Origin: Elusimicrobiota bacterium
Lineage (GTDB): Bacteria; CG03; SLGR01; PWQF01
Length of the DNA: 10,704 nucleotides
NCBI GenBank assembly: GCA_003557485.1
Contig: PWOI01000063.1
Location: 1-10,704 of the forward strand
Direction of reading: 5' to 3'
Shown here: positions 1-10,704 of the stretch, piece after piece
Layout of the letters: the number at the start of each line of letters is the position of its first letter
Numbering within the stretch: position 1 is the first letter of the stretch
Program-made: the position numbers and the translations under genes
The notes under the pieces: model-generated
Told to the model about the DNA's origin: nothing
The model's database searches: none
The model's input: the letters and a program-made list of their open reading frames with translations, nothing else

Positions 1-192
1 CCCGCCTATACCCCGCCTGCGGATACCGGCAGCAGCAGTAATTTCGGCGGAGGGTATGGCGGCGTAGCCCAGGATTATTTCGGGTCCGGAAGCATTCCCG
101 CCTATACCCCGCCTGCGGATACCGGCAGCAGCAGTAATTTCGGCGGAGGGTATGGCGGCGTAGCCCAGGATTATTTCGGATCCGGAAGCATT
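1..192 (+). repeat. Two tandem copies of a 96-bp in-frame repeat (32 residues each)
   Basis: Bases 1-96 and 97-192 are identical except for base 84 (G) against base 180 (A), a silent change in a Gly codon. Each copy encodes 32 residues starting PAYTPPADTG and ending QDYFGSGSI, with a central Ser/Gly/Phe/Tyr stretch. The composition (Gly, Ser, Pro, Tyr, Phe, no Lys, Arg or Cys) suggests a flexible or disordered linker. The array begins at the window edge, so more copies are likely upstream. After base 192 the sequence leaves the repeat and becomes Pro/Gly-rich (HTHPGPGGP). Confidence 0.97.
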
Positions 193-3100
193 CATACACA
201 CCCGGGTCCGGGCGGTCCGTTAGATAAAGGTTCTTCCATCCCAACCGTTGATGACTCATTTTTCAGAGGCGGCAATATTCCTGAAACACACAGAACTCCC
301 GGACAGATTCCGGATAATGTATATGAGCTTTCATCCGGCGGCTTATACGGGAATCAGCTGGATTTACATAATTTTGGAAATGTGCCGGTTTCCTCTACTT
401 CTCCGGATGGAACAACTGAAGTGTATTATACTGACGGGGCGAGGGGTACCTATTACTCGGACGGCAGCGCAGTCGAAACCGGCCGGCTGGGTAACTATGA
501 TTATATAACAACATTTAATCCTGACGGGTCAAGTTATACAGAAGCAAATCGTGATAATGGAGACTTCAGGATGGTAGCAACCGATCATGAAGGGAACCGG
601 ACAACTACACATGTTACCGCCCCCGGGAGTGACGGTTCGCAAATGGCGTATGTTAATAATCCTGATCATAGCCGGGATATCATAACCTTAAACCCGGATG
701 GAAGCGGGACCGGACAACACAGAACTTCCTCCGGAGATTGGACTACTACTGAGTACACCACCCAGGATATGTCCGATGCTTTTTTAATTAATGAAGGTGT
801 TTCCCAATTTGCCACAGGCAAGGCAAATGAGTTGCTCAACTCACAGCCTACGGATGGCACAGGATGGATAGGTGATTTAGGAACCCCGTTTTATGATAGC
901 ACGAGCATCCGAAATCCTATTGACAGTATGTCAAATCCCCTGGAAAGTCTTTCACAGCAGCAGCAGGATCTTATAAATTTTGTAAATCCCCAGAGTCCTA
1001 TTGATCCGATTAGAGTAGAGATTCCGGGAGTATCCTCAGGGTTGCAGAACGATGCGCATGAATTATGGACTTCCACTTATGAATCTGCCAGGGATGGAGC
1101 CTATATCAGCGAGAGTGTGGTGAGACATGAAGGGTTACTTGTAAATGACGGTAATCCTATAGATACAATTGTGCTTGGAAATGATATGGGCACCATAACT
1201 GCTCGAAATGAAGACGCGGTGTGGAGTAATCCTGAAGGTAATTACAGTGAATACTGGGGAACTGTAAACCCTGAAGTTGAAGTTATTCTTCAATCCGGAG
1301 CGCAGTTATATGATAACGGCCACGTAAAGCACGGGGAGATTTTTAACTCCTCCGGGGATAGTATTGTGGACATGAGGCCGGGAGAAGAGGATGACGGTAT
1401 GCCCGGGCAAAGGTCTATGCCGCACGTAAATACAGACGGTATATTATACCAGTTCGACGGCGGATGGATAGTAAGCGGGGAGAACAGCATTATTTCCATT
1501 AGGGACGGAAACCTTGCGGTTGAGGGCATAGGTATGCAGATGCGTGTAGGGTCGGAGTTTGATTCCCCGGCCGGCCGCATGTTTGTTCACTCAGGTGATT
1601 CTCTTGTTATGCGGGCAGACGGGTCCTACGCCTCTACAGGGGATAATACCACAACCTATCTGGGTTCAAGGGATGTAATTGATGTAATCAGCGCCGAAAG
1701 TCGGGGTGAGTCACTTGGCGGAATATCCGAAATTATGGTTTGCCAGGAGTTTAATTACGGCAGCGAAGGGGTGTTAGGTGGTGGTGTTGTAGTTATAAAT
1801 CCAAATTTTCAACATCAGGTAAGCTCACTTACTGACTATGATATTCAGAGCGGAGGTGTCTCTCAATATCATCCGGGGATGTACTACCAGCCTGATTTTA
1901 TAAGCCGTCAAAGGGCCGCCGGGTATGAGGTTACACCGAACGGAGATTTGACAGATTTTTCAAGCGATCCGGATGCTTCTTACATTATTATGACGGAGGA
2001 CGGCGGAAGGTATATTGTTGAAAACCCGGATGAAATTTATAGCGCCTTAAGTGAAAACAGGGCGATTGAAAGCGCCGAAACCGGAATAAGACATAATATG
2101 GAACACAGGGACACGTTTATAAAAGACAGTGCTATTGAAGGAATAGTACATCATTTCAGAGCCGGCGGGGGCGAATCGACTTACGGCAAGGTTTTTGAAA
2201 CAATGACAGGTGAGCCGGGCCTTGACTGGGGTTTTGACCACGGCGGGTATATGGAAGGCGAGTTGATAGCGGCCGGGAGAGTAAATTCGGGAAATTATGA
2301 CAATCTTCATTTTGCCGCTTTCGGACCTGAGGGGGGCCATATAGGGGTTTACGCGATTACCGGGGATCCCGAGTCAGGGTTTGAACTGCAAAAGGGATCA
2401 TACGGACACGGGGAGGTCGCCCGGGACTACGGAGCTTATTTTGATGAGGGTTCAGATCAGATACTGCAGGTCTGGGAAGGTGCTCCGGAGCAGTCCTGGT
2501 TAATAGAGCAAGCGGATAAGTATACTTTTTCTATTGACGGCCAGGAGTTTAATATAAGGGTAGGGGAAAACAACGATATAACAAACCTCAATCCCTACCG
2601 GATGTACTCAACCGGGTACGCTCACAGCGAAACAGACCTCAACTTCTATCTTGACGGCATATCCGTTCTCGCTGACGGGCATTTTATGCTTGAAGTGAGC
2701 CCGAACCTTAATACCTCTGAGCGGTTGGATAATATGTATGCCAGCGGCGCTCTCTCAGAGGGTATCACCGAAGGAAAAGGCGGCGGGGATATTGAAATTA
2801 CAGATAGCAGAAATAATTCTTTTCTGGTTGATATGGGTATCATAAATACAGATTCACTCTCGAATACTATATCCCTTGAGAGCCTGCAGGACAACTCACG
2901 GTTTTCCGCCTCTTTCCATGCGATGGAGATGGTAAGCGGCGAGGTGCAGAACCTTTACTTTAACGCGTTTCACGGCGGGACCGAAGCTGTTTTCATAGAA
3001 GGTTCAAATTACGTTGCTCAGACCGCCCAGTCTCTTATTGACGGGGTTGCCGGCGGTGACGGAAAAGTGGCGGAAACAGAACCTTTTGAGCATGTATCAT

Positions 3101-6100
3101 TCGATGAGGATACAACGGTGTTTTTCAACAGGGATGCCGGGATAAATGAGATTTCGTCATTCTTTAACAGGGATACTTTTAAATCCGGAAAGGCTACCAT
3201 AGAAAGAAGTTTTGACATGGAATTCATCTCGGGCGCAAAAGAAGGAACTACGGAATCCTATACCTCGGAAACAGTCGTGACAGCCTCCCAGTCTATTGAC
3301 AGACGACAGGGTCAGGAGGTCGGAACGAGCACGAACTTCAGTGAAAGAACTGAAATAAGGGACAGCTCCGGTAATATCCTCAAAGACTGGCTTGGCGGCC
3401 CTACAAGCAGAATAGAGACCGGAAGCGGAACAATATTCACGGAAAACTGGGGACGGACCATTGAGATTAGAGCTGACGGTATGAGTATCCAGAGAGGCGC
3501 AATAAATGAAATTGGAGTAAGTTTAGGCGTGGCGGCTCATGGAGTTAACTATATCCTCAGCAGCGTTATGGCCGCCAGCGAAGCGCTGGTAAACGCCGTA
3601 ATTCCATCATCTCAGTCCGATACCTGGTCAAATCAGATGCAGCGTTCGGGAGAGAGTTTTATCAACCATCTTACACAATCGACCATGGAAGAGTTTAATT
3701 CCCTCGGCACGTTGGAGAAGGCCGGCGCGGTAGTGGCAGGTGCTTTATCTACTATCCTTGATATAGGGGCTGGTATAGCCATAGCAACCGGGATATTAAA
3801 GCCGGTTGGCGCTGCCATAAAAGGCGTATCAATGGGATTAAGGAGCGCGCTTACAGGCAGTCTTGGAAGGATAGCCGGCAGAAAGGTAGCGTCGGCCGGG
3901 TTGAGGTCTGTCGGGGTTAAGAAAGGCGCTTCGGTTGCCGGGAAAAGTATAAAGTATGGCACTTTTTTTAATAAGGCTGCTCCCCCCACGACCGGTATTG
4001 CCAATGCTAAAAGGCTGCAGGCATTAAGAGAAGCTGGTCTGCTTAAAGGCTCTCAGGGAGCCGCTAAAATCGCGGGTAAGCCTGTTACCTATACTGGTGT
4101 AAAAACAGTTTCCGGCCAAGCTATAACATCCGCCGCCGCGCGGCCTGCTGCTTTGACTACATCGGAAAAAGTTGCCTCCGTTCTTCAGTCTTTTGCCCGC
4201 GGACAGATAGCCGCTCATAACCAGATTATGCAGGCCGCCGGCGGAAAAGTAACGGCAAAGACAACTGTAAGCTCCTGGTATACCCGCCTGGTTACTATGG
4301 GAAGCGTCCGCGTTTACGGGCGGGCTGGAAGCGCTGTAGTTGATGTTTTAGGGGACCGGCTTGACAGCCGCACGGCGGACGCATTTCATATGGCCTTTGA
4401 GGCGCTTCCTGTACTCTTCAGCGCTCCGGTCGGGATTGCCGGCAGGGCCGCCACTGAAGCCGGGAAGGTGGGAATACTAAATTTTGGTAACAAAACCACC
4501 TCCTGGATAGTCGGAACCTCTGCTGTCGCAGGCGGCGCCGCCGTGGGCGTAGGGCGTGCTTATGCGAATGGCCAGATAGAAACCTTGCAGGATGCGGTGA
4601 TGCCTGCTCTTGCAGGCGGTCTTGTGGGTCTCGGGCTTGTTGCGCTGGGAAGAGGGTTATTTGCCGGAGTGAGAGAAACGCTTACAAAAGGTTCAGCTGG
4701 GTTAACGGACGGCCTGATATCATACGCTCCCACCGCCGCCAAAACAGCGATTAAGTATACAGGAGCGGTTGCGGGCGGGACCGCTCTCGGGGCAGCCAAC
4801 TGGGCCAGCGCCTCCGATAGCAGGGAGTTTATGGATTTCTTCAGCGGCGATATTCTCAGCAATATGATGACTCCTGAATTTGCTTCCGGAGCTTTCGTGG
4901 GAACCATTGCGGGTGCCTCTATATTCGGCCAGGGCGGTATAGGTGTTATTAATAACCTTGCGCGCGGCGGAAAATACGGCACGAAATTAGGAGTATTCGG
5001 AGGTGTGGGAGCTGCCGCCGGTCTTACAAGTTACTACGGGTTTGATCAGAGTCTGGGAGCGTCTATAGGTATAGGAGCGGCGGCGGGATTAGCCGCGGTG
5101 GCTCTTATCTCCCAGCCGGGCGGGATAGGGAAATTTGTTCAGAACCTCCCGGGAGATACACTGCGCACGGTAAGAAGGGTTATGGGGATGAGAGTTGTGA
5201 CATCGGCTACTCTCGGGAGTATGGATTACTTCGGTTTCCAAGCGCCTGAAAATATGGCCCTAAACCTGTTTGGTTATGATGTCTTCGGTTTTACGACTGT
5301 GGAGGGCGAAGGCGGTTACTCGGAGCCGGCGCTTGCCTTTTTCGGGATTCAGCTTACTTACAGCGACAGCGGAAGCCTTGGGGACCGGCTCTTTCACTCT
5401 GTCCAGACCGGGCACGAGATGATGCATAGTCCTGCTCTCTGGGCTTTCTCGCTCTCTGTGGCAGCCGCCAGGCCAATACTTGCTCCTCTGGTGCAGGGGA
5501 TGTTAGGGTTCAATCAGTTAAACCAGGGGCTTACGAAATTTGCAGGGTTCACAACCGCGAAAAACCCGCTTGCGCAGTTTGCGAATTATTTCTACGAGGT
5601 AGGGCTTCAGGAATTCGGTCCGCAGCTGGTTTTCGGAGGGGTAGCGGGGTTTTCGCAGTCCGGCGCAATTGGGGAGCAGGCGGTTGAGCTTCTGCGTGAG
5701 ACCTACGGCCGGGGTTTTAGCGGCGGGAATATGGCTTTTAACTCCGTCTCTAATATTTCCTCTCAGCTCCAGTCGGCTGTGCATAATTTTTCCGGCTCAA
5801 GGTCTTTCTCCGCCGCGGAAGCAGGCAACCTGTACAACTCCCTGCCCTCTCATATGCGTCCGTCTTTAAGTCTTGACGCCTTGCAGAACTTCGCCCAGCA
5901 GAACAATACCAATAATGAAATGGCCAAGCTCGCGGTTGTTACTGATGCTCTGGCGCAGAACGCCGGACTGGATAATTCTCAGAGCAGTAATCTGGTAGCC
6001 GAGATTACCGGAATATCCCAGGGGGTTTCATCTGACGGACATACGGCTATTACTTCATCCGGAACGAATTCCGTTTCCGAGGCGGTACGTAAGGCGGATC

Positions 6101-9100
6101 CGGATACTGTTATAAATATTCTCCACGGCGTATCCTTAATGGCAAAATTTAGCCGGGACGGAAGAAGTCTGGAGAGTCTGCTTGGAGCAGACAGCCGTCT
6201 TGACGCGTCTGCGCTGAGCCGGATGGCAGCGGAAGAACTTAATGCCGAGGGATTTGAGAATATAAACGCTGGAGTCGTTGAAACCCTTGGAACTTATGTG
6301 ATGAGTGTCTCCCAACTTATGAACTCAATGAGGGACTCGTCTCAGAATTTTGATGATTTCGCGCGTTACGGAAACCTGCAGCAGAACGCCGAAAACGTTG
6401 TCTCTGAACTGGGTTCCCGGTTGAAGGATTACACTCACGGTTTGAACATAAACGAAGGTCTTGTAAACAGTCTTCTCGGGACAGCCGCCGCGGTGGAGGT
6501 ATCCGGAGATTCGGAACTCCAGGGGCATTTTGCCAAGACACTTCTTGCGGACTCCGGGCGGTTTCTGAATTCGCTCGTGGATTGGGGGAAAAGCCAGAGT
6601 GAAGATTATAGAGATGATGCCGTAGGGAAAGTCACTATGTTTAACCTTTACCTTGGAAAAACTCTTACTGCAATGAACGCCCGGTCTCTTATGGATGTTA
6701 TTAACAATGATAATTTTGACAGGAGTTACCGGGATACCGCCAGGGAGTCTCTTTTAAGGAAAATGAGCCCGAACCAGCAGAGACAGACAGTAGCCGATGT
6801 TCTGAGGGGAAATCATGAAAATACCGTCAATGTAGACGGGGTTGAACTGAAGGCAGGAGATTTCTCCGGTATGATGGCCTTGTTTTCGGCATTTCAGTTT
6901 GAAGGCAGTAAAATTACCGACCTGAAAATGGAACTGGCGAAGGACGGCAGTAACCGGTGGAATATTTCTGAGGGAAATCTTTCCATACCTCTGGTTGCGG
7001 AAAGCGATCAAGCTGAACCCGGCACCATAGAAGTAAGCCTCAGGGGAACTTCCCTGAACCCGGATATGGGTAATGCGCTTAATCATTACGTGCAGGACGG
7101 TACGGTGGATCTCTCAGCAGCAGAAAGAGAAAAAATCCAGCAAGCCTATGACTTGATGTTGGCAACGGGAAGGATGCAGCGCGCCCCTCCCGCAAACGTC
7201 AAAGCTCTTGACAGGCTGGCTGAGGCCGCTCAACATCTCACCCCGGCAGATGATATGCAGAGTTATGTACTGAAACCCGGTGTTGCGGAAAAGCTGTCAG
7301 CAGACGCCCTGAAGGAAACTGAAAAGATAATGAACGATCTTAACAGAATAATAAAAACATACGTTAAAGAGGCTGGAAAGGCCGGTTTAAGAGAGAAAGA
7401 GGGTCAAAAACAGATAGAATTCATTCATCAGCTTCTTACCCCCAACAGTATGCATCAGCTTCAGACAGGCTCAGGAAAAACATTAATGCTTACCCCGATC
7501 TTTTCAATGTACCTCCTAAACAATGGGGTGGATGTTTCGGTGGTATTCCCCAATCCCTCGAGGGCAAACGAGGCTTATGACAAGGTTTATTCCCAGGGGT
7601 TTCATAACGCGGTAAATATTCTCAGCAAGCAGTCGGGTTTTGAAAAACTGCAAAATGTGAAGATACTCAGGCTGGGAGAAGATGACCTGGATGGGTTCAG
7701 GAAGCAGCTTTCTGAGAATGGAATAATTGAACATAACGGCGTTAAGTATAAAAATCTTGAAAAACTCATAGCTGATCACAGAGTTATTCTTACTACTCTC
7801 GGGGTATCCAACGCGATAAAAATGGACTCTCTGAACAGGGATGAGGCTGCCTGGAATAATATGGTAAGAAACCGGTACGCCATTATTGACGAAGCCCACA
7901 CGATCCCCGGCGCTCCTGACCTTGTTATAGGTTCGAATACATCAAAATTGAAGGAACTTGACAAGGCGGCTTACGATGCCAGCAGGAGTGTGGCGGAAGC
8001 TTTTATGGATAAATTAGGTGTTAAAGGCTTACTTGAAAACAATATTCCCAACCCTGTCGTGGGGTATATGAAAAACTGGCTTAACAGCGAGGCGGGACGC
8101 CCTTACAGAGATATGGGGATTTCATTCAACGATCTGCTGGAGGCAAATTATATTAATTCTGAAGGAAACAGAATATCCGCTGAGGAGCATAGCCAGCTTG
8201 AGCCCGGGCTGCAGGAACAGTATTTTAATATGGAACAGGTACGCAACGAACTTTTTGAACAGATGAGGCTGGACAGCAGTCTGGCCGAGCAGTGGAATGA
8301 CCAGGCTGACAGGCTTATGCAGATGTATATAGATGCTATGAATTACGGCATTACGCTCGAAACATTTAAGAGTGACTCCAGGTACAACCTGGAGAGGCAG
8401 GCTATAACTTCCTGGCAGGAAGCTTTCAGCACCGTCAGCGGAAAACAATGGGGGTACGACAGCGAATCGAACCGGGTCGCTCCGATGTCAAATGACAAGA
8501 TCGCTTTAAATATGAGGTTCAGCAACCCTTACCTGGCTGCTGTTTACCAGATGGCAGGGTATATCTACTCGAATTATGAGATAAGACCTGACGGTAGCGT
8601 AGCCAGAAAGGGCTCGGAAGCCTCACTCTCTGATAAAGATATAATGCTGGAATTTATCTCGGAACGCACCGGGAAAACTGATAGAAAGAAAGACCCGGCC
8701 GGGAGTAGTGATAACCTGAGAGATATAATAGCAAGCTTTGTGGAAGACCAGCTTGACCTTGTAGAGACCAACCCGGACAGTAAACGTGTTACCGTGCTTA
8801 CTCTTGCCAGGGAAGCCGCGGGCGCTACTTACATCAGCGCTACAATAGCTCCGGTCAAAGAATATTTTCAGCTTTCCCTGGGGTTAAAAGTAGGGGCGGA
8901 GCTTGGACAGCCAATGGCCTCCTATAGGCCCGGGGGAAGACGGTTTGACGAGATTAGTGGGGTTGGATTTGTGGAACAGACCGGAAATCGTGTTGAGACC
9001 AAGGAAAACCTTTATAGGGAAGCGGAAAAATTAGCCCGCGCTGAAGGCGAAAACAGGCATATTATGCTGATAGGCGAATCTTCTCGCTTGGATAACGAAA

Positions 9101-10704
9101 ACTACCACGATATCGCCCGGGATCTCCTGCGAAATGAAGAAGGCTTTGATAAGCTGGTCATACTTGCCGGTGACAGCGCAACCATAGTAGAGGCTGTTTT
9201 TCAGGACGGCATATTCAGTCACTTTTCCGAAAGAGAAGCCGGATATGTTCACAGGCAGACCGGCGAGGTGATATCAAGAAGCAGCCACGATAATATGAGC
9301 CCTGAAGCTCGCAGGGACTACTTTAACGAGCAGGAACAAATATTGGCTCACAATCCTACGGGGCCACGTGGAAGAAATATCGTTTTTGTTGACAGGGGAA
9401 ACAAGGAAGGTATGGACCTGGACTTCAATAAGGACAGCTATGTTCAGGTAAATGAACAAGGCCGCCCCGTACAGGGAACCGAGGTCGCAAAAGCCGAACT
9501 TCTTGGGGAAATATTTAATAATAGTACTTATAGCAAAGAGACTACACTTGATAATTTTCTTAACCTTGACAGGTACGAGAATGCCAGAGCGGAATTGCTT
9601 AATGAATATAATGAAAATAACGGCACCTCATATGAGCAGCTTGGAGATGTATCAGTTCTCCAGTTCTCTGTGTTTGATAGTAATACTGACGCTACTTCCG
9701 CGGACCAGTCACTCGGCCGGGACAGGGCTGCCAATGAAAAACATATCTTTTTCATCGGAACAAAACCTGAGTTTGCTTCACTTATAAATGCCACAAGTCA
9801 CACTGAAAGGGTTAATGAGTCTATAGGAATTCTGGAGGCCGCAGAAGCGGAGGCCGGAAAAGGCAGAAAGATTGAGGCCCTGAGAAAATCCCTGAGCGAG
9901 GCTCTAACCTTCCAGATGGAGGTAATGGCCCAGATGGAAAGTACTGACGCAGGCTATGAGGCCATACAGAGCGCTATGAAAGAGTTTCACAGCAAGGCTG
10001 TTTACCTGGGGCATATGTACAAGTCGCATAATATGACCGCTGAAGACTCTCTCAGGGGATTTATAAACAGCCAGCTAGACACTTTTATTGAATCCCTGCA
10101 GGGAGTTTCAGGTGATCTTAATCAGGGAAACCAGACCTTTCTTGAAATAATTGCCGCTGCTCATCAGAGGGGCGAATTCAACCTTAATCCGCAGGGCAAT
10201 CAATCCAATGAAAAAGCCTGGTCTGCTGAACTTGGACTGGCCAGGATGAGTGTATTTGACATGATCAGAAGTATAAACGCTAATTTCTCCTCCGAAAACC
10301 TTAGTTTTACAGTTGAGGGAAGAAGGACGGAGGCTATCAGGCCCGCGGCTACTACGGAATATTCAGCGAAACAGGGTTTTACAGCAAATGTTAATGAAGA
10401 CAGGTTCAATGAAGCGGTCAGCCAGAACCTAGCTACGGAAAAAGCAGAGGCGCTTTCTCAGGCCAGGGGAATAGCGCGCCTTGGGGCAAGGTTTGCAAAG
10501 ATAAGCGGTGAAGCGGAGAGCAAGGCAAGAGAGAGCCAGCTGAACCGGGTGATAACGGATGTTGTCACTATGGCCAACAGGGCGCTGGCAGAAGATTCTT
10601 CAGTAGTAAATAAAGATCAGTTTGCTGTAAGGGTCCCCGAAAATATGAAAGATGATTTACTGAGTTCTTCCAAGCTGGCAGAAACCCTGGAAAAGGTCGG
10701 CCAG
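1..10704 (+). CDS. Internal fragment of a giant multidomain membrane protein with a SecA-like DEAD ATPase domain (partial at both ends)
   Basis: Frame 1 reads through all 3568 codons without a stop, and both ends are open, so the real protein is longer than 3568 residues. The order of parts is: Gly/Ser/Tyr repeat (residues 1-64), acidic beta-rich region (65-1165), hydrophobic segments and basic loop (about 1170-1836), helical connector (1837-2460), SecA-like superfamily 2 ATPase (about 2461-3257) and helical tail (3258-3568). The ATPase shows Walker A TGSGKT (2489-2494), DEAH (2630-2633) and SAT (2946-2948). Known SecA is about 800-900 residues, free-standing and lacks such extensions, so this is not a housekeeping SecA. 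Only one cysteine codon is present (1741-1743). Arg codons AGA/AGG and Ile codon ATA are frequent throughout, with no obvious shift that would suggest separate genes. Giant proteins with many membrane segments and a divergent SecA DEAD domain are known from metagenomic bacteria, mainly Omnitrophota, and were linked to attachment and predation; that role here is inference. Coding status is near certain; the function is not established. Confidence 0.95.
193..3500 (+). other. N-terminal acidic, Gly/Asp/Ser/Asn-rich region, probably beta-rich and exported
   Basis: Residues 65-1166 are rich in Gly, Asp, Glu, Ser, Asn and Thr and have many short hydrophobic strands between polar turns. The first 400 residues of the window contain only two lysines. 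A Gly/Tyr/His/Phe-rich block lies at about 715-830 (for example FDHGGYMEGE and YGHGEVARDYG), which could be a beta-sandwich or ligand-binding module, but I do not recognise the family. A short duplicated motif, FFNRD, occurs at 1041-1045 and 1054-1058. The only cysteine of the window is residue 581. No long hydrophobic helix is visible before about residue 1170. The composition is like that of large surface or secreted adhesin-type proteins, and its place before the membrane segments suits an extracytoplasmic domain. No catalytic site is evident. Confidence 0.5.
400..705 (+). repeat. Degenerate Asp-Gly turn repeats, resembling YD/Rhs-type beta repeats
   Basis: Residues 134-235 contain a run of similar short turns: SPDGT (134), YYTDG (142), YYSDG (151), NPDGS (173), DHEGN (195), GSDGS (209) and NPDGS (231). 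The intervals are about 9 residues at first and then about 15-22, and the turns are separated by short alternating stretches rich in Thr, Tyr and Val. This is the look of strand-turn-strand repeats such as the YD repeats of Rhs and wall-associated proteins, where they build extended beta shells or stalks. The spacing is irregular and the YD consensus is not clean, so the family assignment is tentative. Confidence 0.45.
3508..3798 (+). other. First hydrophobic segments: amphipathic helix and probable transmembrane helix
   Basis: Residues 1170-1202 form a moderately hydrophobic, Ala/Val/Ser-rich stretch interrupted by His, Asn and Glu, which could be an amphipathic or weakly inserted helix. Residues 1241-1266 are a much better transmembrane candidate: 26 residues of Ala, Gly, Val, Ile and Leu with a single Asp (1254), preceded by EKAG and followed by Lys1267 and the basic loop. 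By the positive-inside rule this helix would run from the outside (N-terminal side) into the cytoplasm. Judged by eye; no predictor was run. Confidence 0.6.
3799..4200 (+). other. Strongly basic Gly/Ala-rich loop, probably cytoplasmic
   Basis: Residues 1267-1400 contain 14 Lys and 8 Arg but only 2 Glu and no Asp, a sharp contrast with the acidic region before it. The segment is rich in Gly, Ala, Ser and Val, with patches such as GRIAGRKVASAG and GVKKGASVAGKSIK. Its position directly after the first clear transmembrane helix is what the positive-inside rule predicts for a cytoplasmic loop. It could also bind anionic lipid or nucleic acid, but nothing in the sequence decides this. Confidence 0.6.
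4381..5112 (+). other. Cluster of Gly/Ala-rich hydrophobic helices (putative multi-pass membrane domain)
   Basis: At least six hydrophobic stretches follow each other: residues 1501-1520, 1532-1550, 1584-1600, 1627-1650, 1663-1679 and 1685-1704, with a weaker one at 1461-1482. They are dominated by Gly, Ala, Val, Leu and Ile with glycine-zipper-like spacing, for example AGGLVGLGLVALG and IGIGAAAGLAAVALI. The linkers are short (about 6-35 residues) and contain charged or polar residues. Such small-residue helices pack tightly, and the layout suits a compact multi-pass membrane domain or pore-like bundle. Several stretches are short or only moderately hydrophobic, so the number that really cross the membrane is uncertain and the final topology cannot be fixed by eye. 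Confidence 0.55.
5413..5508 (+). other. HEMMH motif followed by a further hydrophobic segment
   Basis: Residues 1805-1809 read HEMMH, which formally matches the HExxH zinc-protease signature, and residues 1811-1836 form another hydrophobic stretch rich in Ala, Leu, Pro and Val. A third zinc ligand in a recognisable family context is not seen, and the flanking sequence does not match a peptidase family I know. The hydrophobic part is interrupted by Arg1824 and two prolines, so it could be a membrane helix, a re-entrant loop or a buried helix. Confidence 0.3.
5509..7380 (+). other. Polar, mostly helical connector between the membrane part and the ATPase
   Basis: Residues 1837-2460 are rich in Ala, Ser, Asn, Gln, Glu, Leu and Met, with many stretches that look like amphipathic helices (for example around 1950-2010, 2100-2170 and 2220-2270). 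The part around residues 2270-2350 has more strand-like and turn-like sequence. The last part (about 2420-2460), rich in Lys, Glu and Leu, leads directly into the ATPase and probably forms an entry helix. There is no recognised motif. In the proposed topology it would be the cytoplasmic arm that couples the membrane domain to the motor. Confidence 0.4.
7465..7482 (+). other. Walker A (motif I), TGSGKT
   Basis: Residues 2489-2494 read TGSGKT, preceded by HQLQ and followed by LML. Lys2493 and Thr2494 are the residues that hold the ATP phosphates and Mg2+ in this fold. SecA usually has GEGKT here, whereas DEAD/DEAH helicases often have GSGKT, so this is a mixed character. A glutamine-containing helix upstream (EGQKQIEF, 2467-2474) is placed like a Q motif. 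Confidence 0.9.
7876..7911 (+). other. Walker B / motif II, DEAH in a SecA-like context
   Basis: Residues 2626-2637 read YAIIDEAHTIPG. Asp2630 coordinates Mg2+ and Glu2631 is the expected catalytic base. The preceding Tyr-Ala-Ile and the following LVIG about ten residues later resemble the SecA pattern in this region. The distance from Lys2493 to Asp2630 is 137 residues, against about 100 in E. coli SecA (Lys108 to Asp209), so the first half of the motor carries extra sequence. Confidence 0.85.
7950..8780 (+). other. Large insertion between motifs II and III, in the position of the SecA cross-linking domain
   Basis: About 290 residues (roughly 2651-2926) separate the motif II region from the strand before motif III. 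In SecA the preprotein cross-linking domain sits in the same place but the motif II to III interval is shorter. The segment is largely helical, with a Glu/Gln/Met-rich part at about 2720-2800. A stretch around NRVAPMSNDK and MRFSNPYLAAVY (2825-2848) may correspond to the SecA segment that comes just before its motif III. A Lys/Arg-rich polar loop lies at 2888-2903. The equivalence is by position and faint resemblance only. Confidence 0.4.
8836..8853 (+). other. Motif III, SAT
   Basis: Residues 2946-2951 read SATIAP, matching the SAT-x-x-P form of motif III in DEAD/DEAH proteins; SecA has TGTA instead. Motif III couples ATP hydrolysis to movement between the two motor halves. It is preceded by REAAGATYI and followed by a Phe/Leu-rich helix, as expected at the end of the first motor half. 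Confidence 0.7.
9382..9420 (+). other. Motif V-like segment of the second motor half
   Basis: Residues 3128-3140 read VFVDRGNKEGMDL. A beta strand ending in an RG and then a G-x-D-(L/I) turn is what motif V looks like (SecA: GRGTDI). The match is weak in isolation but falls between the motif IV-like strand at 3021-3028 and the motif VI-like segment at 3236. Confidence 0.5.
9706..9726 (+). other. Motif VI-like segment, QSLGRDR (arginine finger)
   Basis: Residues 3236-3242 read QSLGRDR, close to the Q-x-x-G-R-x-x-R pattern. Gln3236, Gly3239 and Arg3240 are in place, but the second arginine is one residue early (Arg3242) and the canonical position (3243) is Ala. The following HIFFIG strand (3248-3253) closes the second motor half. 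Confidence 0.55.
9771..10704 (+). other. Polar helical region after the motor, running off the window
   Basis: Residues 3258-3568 are rich in Glu, Ala, Gln, Ser, Lys and Met with long helix-compatible stretches, particularly 3270-3350 and 3455-3510, where charged residues recur in a pattern compatible with coiled coils. SecA has helical wing and scaffold domains after its second motor half, and this part could replace them, but I see no sequence signature of those. No Cys-rich zinc-binding tail, as at many SecA C-termini, is present. The frame is still open at the last base. Confidence 0.45.

What the first reader, a model, noticed from the sequence alone, without database searches (positions are those of the whole stretch)
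7381..9770. A SecA-type translocation motor embedded in a giant membrane protein
Motifs I, II and III of superfamily 2 ATPases are clear, and IV, V and VI are plausible, all in order in one 800-residue block. The motif II context and the large insertion after it resemble SecA. An ATPase that normally works as a separate protein is here covalently joined to membrane helices and a large probably exported region. One possibility is a self-contained export or retraction machine that handles its own polypeptide.
Basis: partly seen in the sequence, partly recalled or inferred. Interest (0 to 1): 0.85.

Follow-up and report, generated by a model that had tools for sequence, protein, structure and literature searches.

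The report
Divergent SecA-like motor in giant protein
A fragment of a very large bacterial protein carries, after a probably exported part and a hydrophobic part, a complete ATP-driven motor whose nearest named relative is SecA, the enzyme that pushes proteins out of cells; giant genes with such motors have been reported before, so this is a new and very divergent example rather than a new kind.

Summary
The window is one contig lying wholly inside one gene: 3568 codons, no stop, open at both ends. The block contains a superfamily 2 (SF2) ATPase: Pfam DEAD E=6.2e-7, motifs in order, motif residues identical in a 43%-identical paralogue. The SecA label is partly supported. At motif I, E. coli SecA is the best of 11 SF2 proteins (z 7.2; 8.8 in the paralogue, where RadD reaches 7.8). 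A profile of the first half finds SecA in 5 of 7 SF2 hits across 386 genomes. Only SecA and DinG among the E. coli SF2 proteins measured have a comparable insertion between motifs II and III. But Pfam SecA_DEAD does not match, a SecA HMM scores RecG and RhlE higher than this protein, motif III shows no SecA preference, and both AlphaFold models failed. I found a third paralogue with the same exported and hydrophobic regions but a far more divergent motor; its motif III matches SecA alone (z 5.1). All three copies are in this genome only, among 386 searched. The organism belongs to a small Elusimicrobia-related phylum. Best reading: a SecA-type motor facing the cytosol, tethered to a giant surface protein. 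Self-export is inferred, not shown.

The parts
1..10704 (+). one stop-free reading frame (3568 aa), internal fragment of a giant gene; start and end lie outside the contig
1..192 (+). two copies of a 96-nt tandem repeat (95/96 identical); the contig starts inside a repeat array. The two paralogous contigs also start in (different) repeats
193..3500 (+). large acidic (about -8 to -12 net charges per 100 aa) N-terminal region, probably exported; no Pfam family; similar to paralogue C20 (27-29%) over much of its length
3511..5712 (+). Gly/Ala-rich hydrophobic region with a basic first part, candidate membrane segments at aa 1243-1261, 1532-1550, 1685-1703; its last 321 aa (4750-5712) are the most conserved part of the three paralogues (47% identity, invariant NYFYEVGLQEFGPQ and VELLRETYG)
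5713..7320 (+). soluble linker between the hydrophobic region and the motor, conserved among the three paralogues up to aa 2349
7360..8010 (+). first nucleotide-binding domain of the motor, first part: motifs I (7453-7485), Ia (7543-7569), Ib-like (7786-7803), II DEAH (7882-7902); Pfam DEAD 6.2e-7
7903..8829 (+). insertion between motifs II and III (SecA has its PPXD, DinG/XPD the Arch domain, at this position); not assigned to a family
8830..8844 (+). motif III YISAT
8923..9770 (+). second nucleotide-binding domain: motif IV-like HIMLIG (9058-9075), V (9382-9420), VI (9700-9726); low-confidence model of the paralogue shows alternating helices and strands here
9778..10583 (+). C-terminal helical region after the motor; partly conserved in paralogue C53
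10584..10704 (+). last 121 nt identical to the end of contig C53: assembly break in a sequence shared by two giant genes

Best explanation
The window is an internal fragment of a giant surface protein gene, one of three paralogues (contigs C72, C53, C20) of an uncultured bacterium of a small Elusimicrobia-related phylum. The protein runs from a repeat array and a large acidic, probably exported region, through a Gly/Ala-rich hydrophobic segment, to a complete SF2 ATPase of divergent SecA type. Shown: the SF2 motor, the order of parts, the three copies, and the near-constant hydrophobic segment. Inferred: the N-terminal part is outside, the hydrophobic segment is in or on the inner membrane, and the motor stays in the cytosol where ATP is. 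There it would act like SecA, as an ATP-driven ratchet on unfolded polypeptide, most likely helping to push the protein's own very long exported part (or a partner chain) through the Sec channel.
For: SF2: Pfam DEAD 6.2e-7; motifs identical in a paralogue. SecA as nearest family: motif I region of 60 aa scores z 7.2 (window) and 8.8 (C53) with E. coli SecA; the ten other E. coli SF2 proteins reach at most 4.7 with the window and 7.8 (RadD) with C53. Profile of NBD1 finds, in 386 genomes, 5 SecA, 1 DEAD-box helicase and 1 reverse-gyrase-like helicase plus 2 non-SF2 hits, although each genome holds many more helicases than SecAs. II-III insertion as in SecA or DinG only. Third paralogue C20, same upstream regions: motif III region z 5.1 with SecA and at most 1.9 with six other families; aa 2900-3120 align over 111 columns to SecA 294-414 with score 31.0 against a maximum of 26.6 in 60 shuffles. 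Layout: acidic N-terminal part, hydrophobic segment, motor, conserved in all three. Giant genes are common in Omnitrophota, Elusimicrobia and CG03 according to PMC12057145.
Against: Pfam SecA_DEAD: absent for the window, 0.054 for C53. A 40-sequence SecA HMM gives 4.0 bits for the window, against 16.3 for RecG and 8.3 for RhlE; best shuffle 3.2. hhalign to the SecA core: 39.5 for the window, but RecG 62.6, RadD 48.8, RhlE 43.5. Motif III of the window and C53 shows no preference for SecA. Both structure predictions failed (pLDDT 35 and 39). The genome already has a normal SecA. No channel-like domain, signal peptide or true N- or C-terminus is in the window; localisation is not shown. The motors of C20 and the window are linked mainly by position (weak local similarity, 2 of 500 shuffles as good).
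Confidence: 0.42

Rival explanations
1. The motor is an effector: the N-terminal region and the hydrophobic segment deliver the C-terminal ATPase into another cell, where it acts on proteins or nucleic acids with the ATP of that cell.
For: The order adhesin-like region, Gly/Ala-rich hydrophobic segment, enzymatic C-terminal part is that of large toxins and effectors (established knowledge), and the C-terminal part varies most among the three paralogues. SecA-like domains occur in Amoebophilus effectors (PMC3482391) and in very long Wolbachia and insect genes (PMC3639933).
Against: No delivery, processing or immunity element was seen; a 1000-residue motor plus further domains is a large cargo; C72 and C53 keep the same motor at 43% identity.
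Confidence: 0.2
2. The motor is a nucleic-acid helicase type of SF2 (XPD/DinG-like or DEAD/DEAH-like) that became part of a giant protein and has nothing to do with protein transport.
For: Best Pfam match is the generic DEAD model; DEAH as motif II; SAT as motif III; DinG also has a long II-III insertion (210 residues); RecG and RhlE are closer to SecA than this protein is.
Against: DinG is among the poorest matches at motif I (z 2.2 and 2.8); no cysteine in the motor, so no XPD/DinG-type iron-sulphur cluster; no nucleic-acid-binding family found; C20 motif III fits SecA and no helicase.
Confidence: 0.2
3. The motor domain no longer works as a motor; it is a structural or regulatory remnant in a huge surface protein, as the strong divergence of C20 suggests.
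For: C20 has kept only loose versions of the motifs (TAQGKT, DELD, SGTA, GGRGMDL, QAEGRLDPR); motif VI of the window is one residue short.
Against: Motif residues of C72 and C53 are identical at 43% overall identity, which points to selection on ATP binding and hydrolysis.
Confidence: 0.13
4. Assembly artefact: a chimeric contig joins unrelated genes.
For: Metagenome assembly, both ends of the contig are repeat breaks.
Against: Three contigs show the same order of parts with 34-47% identity and no stop in 3568, 3736 and 4035 codons.
Confidence: 0.02

Closest known systems
Giant genes of Omnitrophota, Elusimicrobia and CG03 (West-Roberts et al. 2023, bioRxiv 10.1101/2023.11.21.568195; cited in PMC12057145 and PMC13104272; the preprint itself was not held)
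   Same: Very long stop-free genes with hydrophobic segments in the same group of phyla. As I recall its abstract, most full-length giants carry divergent SecA DEAD helicase domains and many membrane segments, which is the arrangement seen here.
   Different: The preprint could not be read or compared sequence by sequence. Here the motor is below Pfam's SecA_DEAD threshold, and a paralogue with an even more divergent motor sits behind the same upstream region.
SecA, preprotein translocase ATPase
   Same: SF2 fold motifs; motif I neighbourhood closest to SecA; long insertion between motifs II and III; C20 motif III and the stretch before it.
   Different: Covalently part of a giant protein; longer insertion (316 against 182 residues); DEAH instead of DEVD; SAT instead of TGTA; family profiles fail; the genome has a separate normal SecA.
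SecA-like domains in long Wolbachia/insect proteins and Amoebophilus effectors (PMC3639933, PMC3482391)
   Same: SecA-like ATPase domain inside very long proteins of unknown function (wBol1_1092 is 11,829 nt).
   Different: Different hosts; sequences not held, so no direct comparison was made; no hydrophobic-segment layout reported there.
XPD/DinG helicases
   Same: DEAH-type motif II and a long insertion between motifs II and III (210 residues in DinG).
   Different: No cysteines for an iron-sulphur cluster; weakest similarity at motif I.

Membership tests
SF2 ATPase/helicase | motifs I, II, III, V, VI in order | tested here: met
   motif positions; Pfam DEAD 6.2e-7; motif VI one residue short
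SF2 ATPase/helicase | two RecA-like domains in the fold | tested here: inconclusive
   AlphaFold2 pLDDT 35 and 39; only a weak alternation of helices and strands in NBD2; Foldseek search of the poor model gave nothing
SecA | match to SecA family profiles | tested here: not met
   SecA_DEAD not reported for the window, 0.054 for C53; own SecA HMM 4.0 bits, below RecG and RhlE
SecA | motif I neighbourhood closer to SecA than to other SF2 families | tested here: met
   z 7.2 and 8.8 with SecA; genome-wide profile finds mostly SecA; RadD close behind for C53
SecA | large domain (PPXD) inserted between motifs II and III | tested here: inconclusive
   an insertion of that position and larger size is present; its homology to PPXD was not detected in the window, only a partial match in C20
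SecA | TGTA-type motif III and AGRGTDI-type motif V | tested here: not met
   ISAT and RGNKEGMDL in the window; SGTA and GGRGMDL in paralogue C20
SecA | helical scaffold, wing domain and C-terminal zinc linker | tested here: not met
   no alignment to the SecA C-terminal half; no cysteine in the motor; anything beyond the contig end is unseen
SecA | ATP-driven protein translocation through SecYEG | not testable with these tools
   needs an experiment
XPD/DinG helicases | iron-sulphur cluster cysteines | tested here: not met
   no cysteine in aa 2374-3407
Giant genes with divergent SecA domain (West-Roberts 2023) | giant gene, membrane segments, divergent SecA-type domain, phylum of the Omnitrophota/Elusimicrobia/CG03 group | tested here: inconclusive
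   size (3568+ aa), hydrophobic segment, motor and phylum fit; full length unknown and the preprint was not held

The most novel reading that the evidence does not exclude
A family of giant proteins in which a conserved membrane segment is permanently coupled to its own SecA-derived motor, so that each molecule carries the engine for exporting or retracting its own surface part, with the motor diverging or being exchanged between paralogues while the membrane segment stays constant.
Probability: 0.18. Interest if true: 0.85.

Novelty: new member of a known kind. Interest (0 to 1): 0.5.

Why it matters
SecA is otherwise a separate, recyclable motor. A SecA-type motor built into giant surface proteins would mean dedicated, one-per-molecule energisation of export or retraction, and would help to answer how bacteria of these uncultured phyla move proteins of many thousands of residues through their envelope. 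The three paralogues make the question testable: a constant membrane segment with motors at different stages of divergence.

Tried and rejected
Structure: AlphaFold2 on the full motor (2 sequences, pLDDT 35) and on NBD2 with the compact paralogue first (pLDDT 39); Foldseek on the latter gave no hit under E 0.001. I did not add SecA sequences to the alignment to force a fold, because the result would have been circular. Relatives: genome contigs, four viral-contig scans, plasmids and phages by tblastn, 60 and 386 genomes and all 16 held genomes of the phylum: nothing beyond the own genome. A hit in G011 was RecG. Solved structures by sequence: only chance matches. NCBIfam, PHROGs, PADLOC: nothing meaningful. 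Similarity of motif V to XPD (RG..EG.D) was considered from memory and not pursued because no XPD profile was at hand and DinG did not score. A SecA_DEAD search of 386 genomes listed only the true SecAs and did not show giants elsewhere. The first motif regex tests failed for the window because of its unusual motif I context and short motif VI and were rewritten. Downstream continuation of the gene was sought and not found. The held library has no bioRxiv preprints, so the key prior work could not be read.

Full report
What is in the window. The + strand is one open frame of 3568 codons from the first to the last base. The window is the complete contig C72 of a draft genome of 2.07 Mb in 212 contigs, 87% complete, so the gene's start and end are missing. 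The contig starts inside a 96-nt tandem repeat and ends in 121 nt that are identical to the end of another contig, C53; both are typical assembly breaks.

The organism. The genome's own SecA is on contig C145. In the collection of named genomes its closest match (65%) is from 'Elusimicrobia bacterium isolate T1Sed10_83R1'. That genome's phylum and the window's phylum hold the same set of 15-16 genomes by number and size, so they are the same small phylum. It is related to Elusimicrobia; that it is GTDB phylum CG03 is my guess, not shown.

The motor. Motifs I to VI occur in order between aa 2485 and 3242. The first part scores 6.2e-7 with Pfam DEAD, over that family's cut-off. A paralogue on contig C53 (3736 codons without a stop) is collinear with the window from aa 1234 to the end (34%), 43% in the motor, and has identical motif residues. 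Motif VI is one residue shorter than usual. Motif II and motif III are 316 residues apart; among the E. coli SF2 proteins measured only SecA (182) and DinG (210) have a long insertion there.

Is it SecA? For: the 60 residues around motif I score z 7.2 with E. coli SecA, the other ten E. coli SF2 proteins at most 4.7; for the paralogue 8.8, with RadD at 7.8. A profile of the first domain, run over 386 genomes, found five SecAs, one DEAD-box helicase and one reverse-gyrase-like helicase, besides two hits that are not SF2. Against: SecA_DEAD does not match the window; a SecA HMM of 40 sequences scores the window (4.0 bits) below RecG (16.3) and RhlE (8.3) and hardly above shuffles (3.2); hhalign shows the same order; outside motif I no part of the window aligns with SecA. 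I therefore say 'nearest to SecA' and not 'a SecA'.

The third paralogue. Scanning 82 of the genome's contigs showed a third copy on C20 (4035 codons, ends with a stop), with the same acidic region and the same hydrophobic segment, 47% identical in the best part. Its motor is so different that BLAST does not see it, but it has TAQGKT, DELD, SGTA, GGRGMDL and QAEGR in order at the expected places. Its motif III region fits SecA (z 5.1) and none of six other families (at most 1.9), and 111 residues before and at motif III align with SecA 294-414, the end of the PPXD and the return to the first domain, better than all of 60 shuffles. MAFFT put motif I of all three, motif II of the window and motif III of C20 into the SecA columns without guidance, but not motifs V and VI. 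The link between the C20 motor and the window motor rests on position and a weak local similarity (2 of 500 shuffles as good).

Distribution. The conserved hydrophobic segment (A5) was found three times in this genome and not in 385 others, which include the same genus and all held members of the phylum. Drafts are incomplete and the first look of that search may miss distant copies, so absence is not proven.

How it probably works. The N-terminal region is strongly acidic (about 10 net negative charges per 100 residues) and repeat-flanked, the middle is Gly/Ala-rich and hydrophobic with a basic start, and the motor is closer to neutral. The simplest topology is: outside, membrane, cytosol. 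A SecA-type motor on the cytosolic side could push or hold the giant's own chain during export through SecYEG, or move a partner chain. None of this step is shown. The main rivals are an effector delivered into another cell, for which SecA-like effector domains in Amoebophilus and Wolbachia are a precedent (PMC3482391, PMC3639933), and a helicase-type motor unrelated to protein transport.

What is known. Giant genes in Omnitrophota, Elusimicrobia and CG03 are described in a 2023 preprint cited by PMC12057145 and PMC13104272. The preprint was not held; from memory, its abstract says that most giants have divergent SecA DEAD domains and many membrane segments. PMC10066038 describes giant ORFs with membrane helices in Omnitrophota without mentioning SecA. 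On that basis the finding is a new, very divergent member of a known kind.

Noticed in passing
L073 (contig C20), nt 2-12107: Third paralogue of 4035 codons with the same exported-like and hydrophobic regions but a motor too divergent for BLAST, ending with a stop codon and followed by about 750 residues after motif VI.
   Followed up: partly
window 10584-10704 and L005 11090-11210: The last 121 nt of two genes that are otherwise about 34-43% identical in protein are identical, which suggests recent exchange of the following part; the next contig is not in the bin.
   Followed up: partly
L106 (contig C158), whole contig: Stop-free 1667-codon frame that fuses a complete phosphoglucomutase and a 6-phosphogluconolactonase/glucosamine isomerase domain: a giant gene with metabolic enzymes inside.
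   Followed up: partly
L102 (contig C154) and L062 (contig C9): Stop-free frames with LOG-type 'lysine decarboxylase' domains (two stretches), and with a sugar epimerase plus methyltransferase.
   Followed up: partly
L068 and L069 (contigs C15, C16), L119 (contig C84): Further long adhesin-like frames: YDG/MBG repeats, GLUG repeats with a chitin-binding-type module, and a 4266-codon frame open at the 5' end of the stretch fetched.
   Followed up: no
window 4750-5712: The hydrophobic segment has an almost invariant NYFYEVGLQEFGPQ stretch in all three paralogues and no known family; it is more conserved than the motor.
   Followed up: partly
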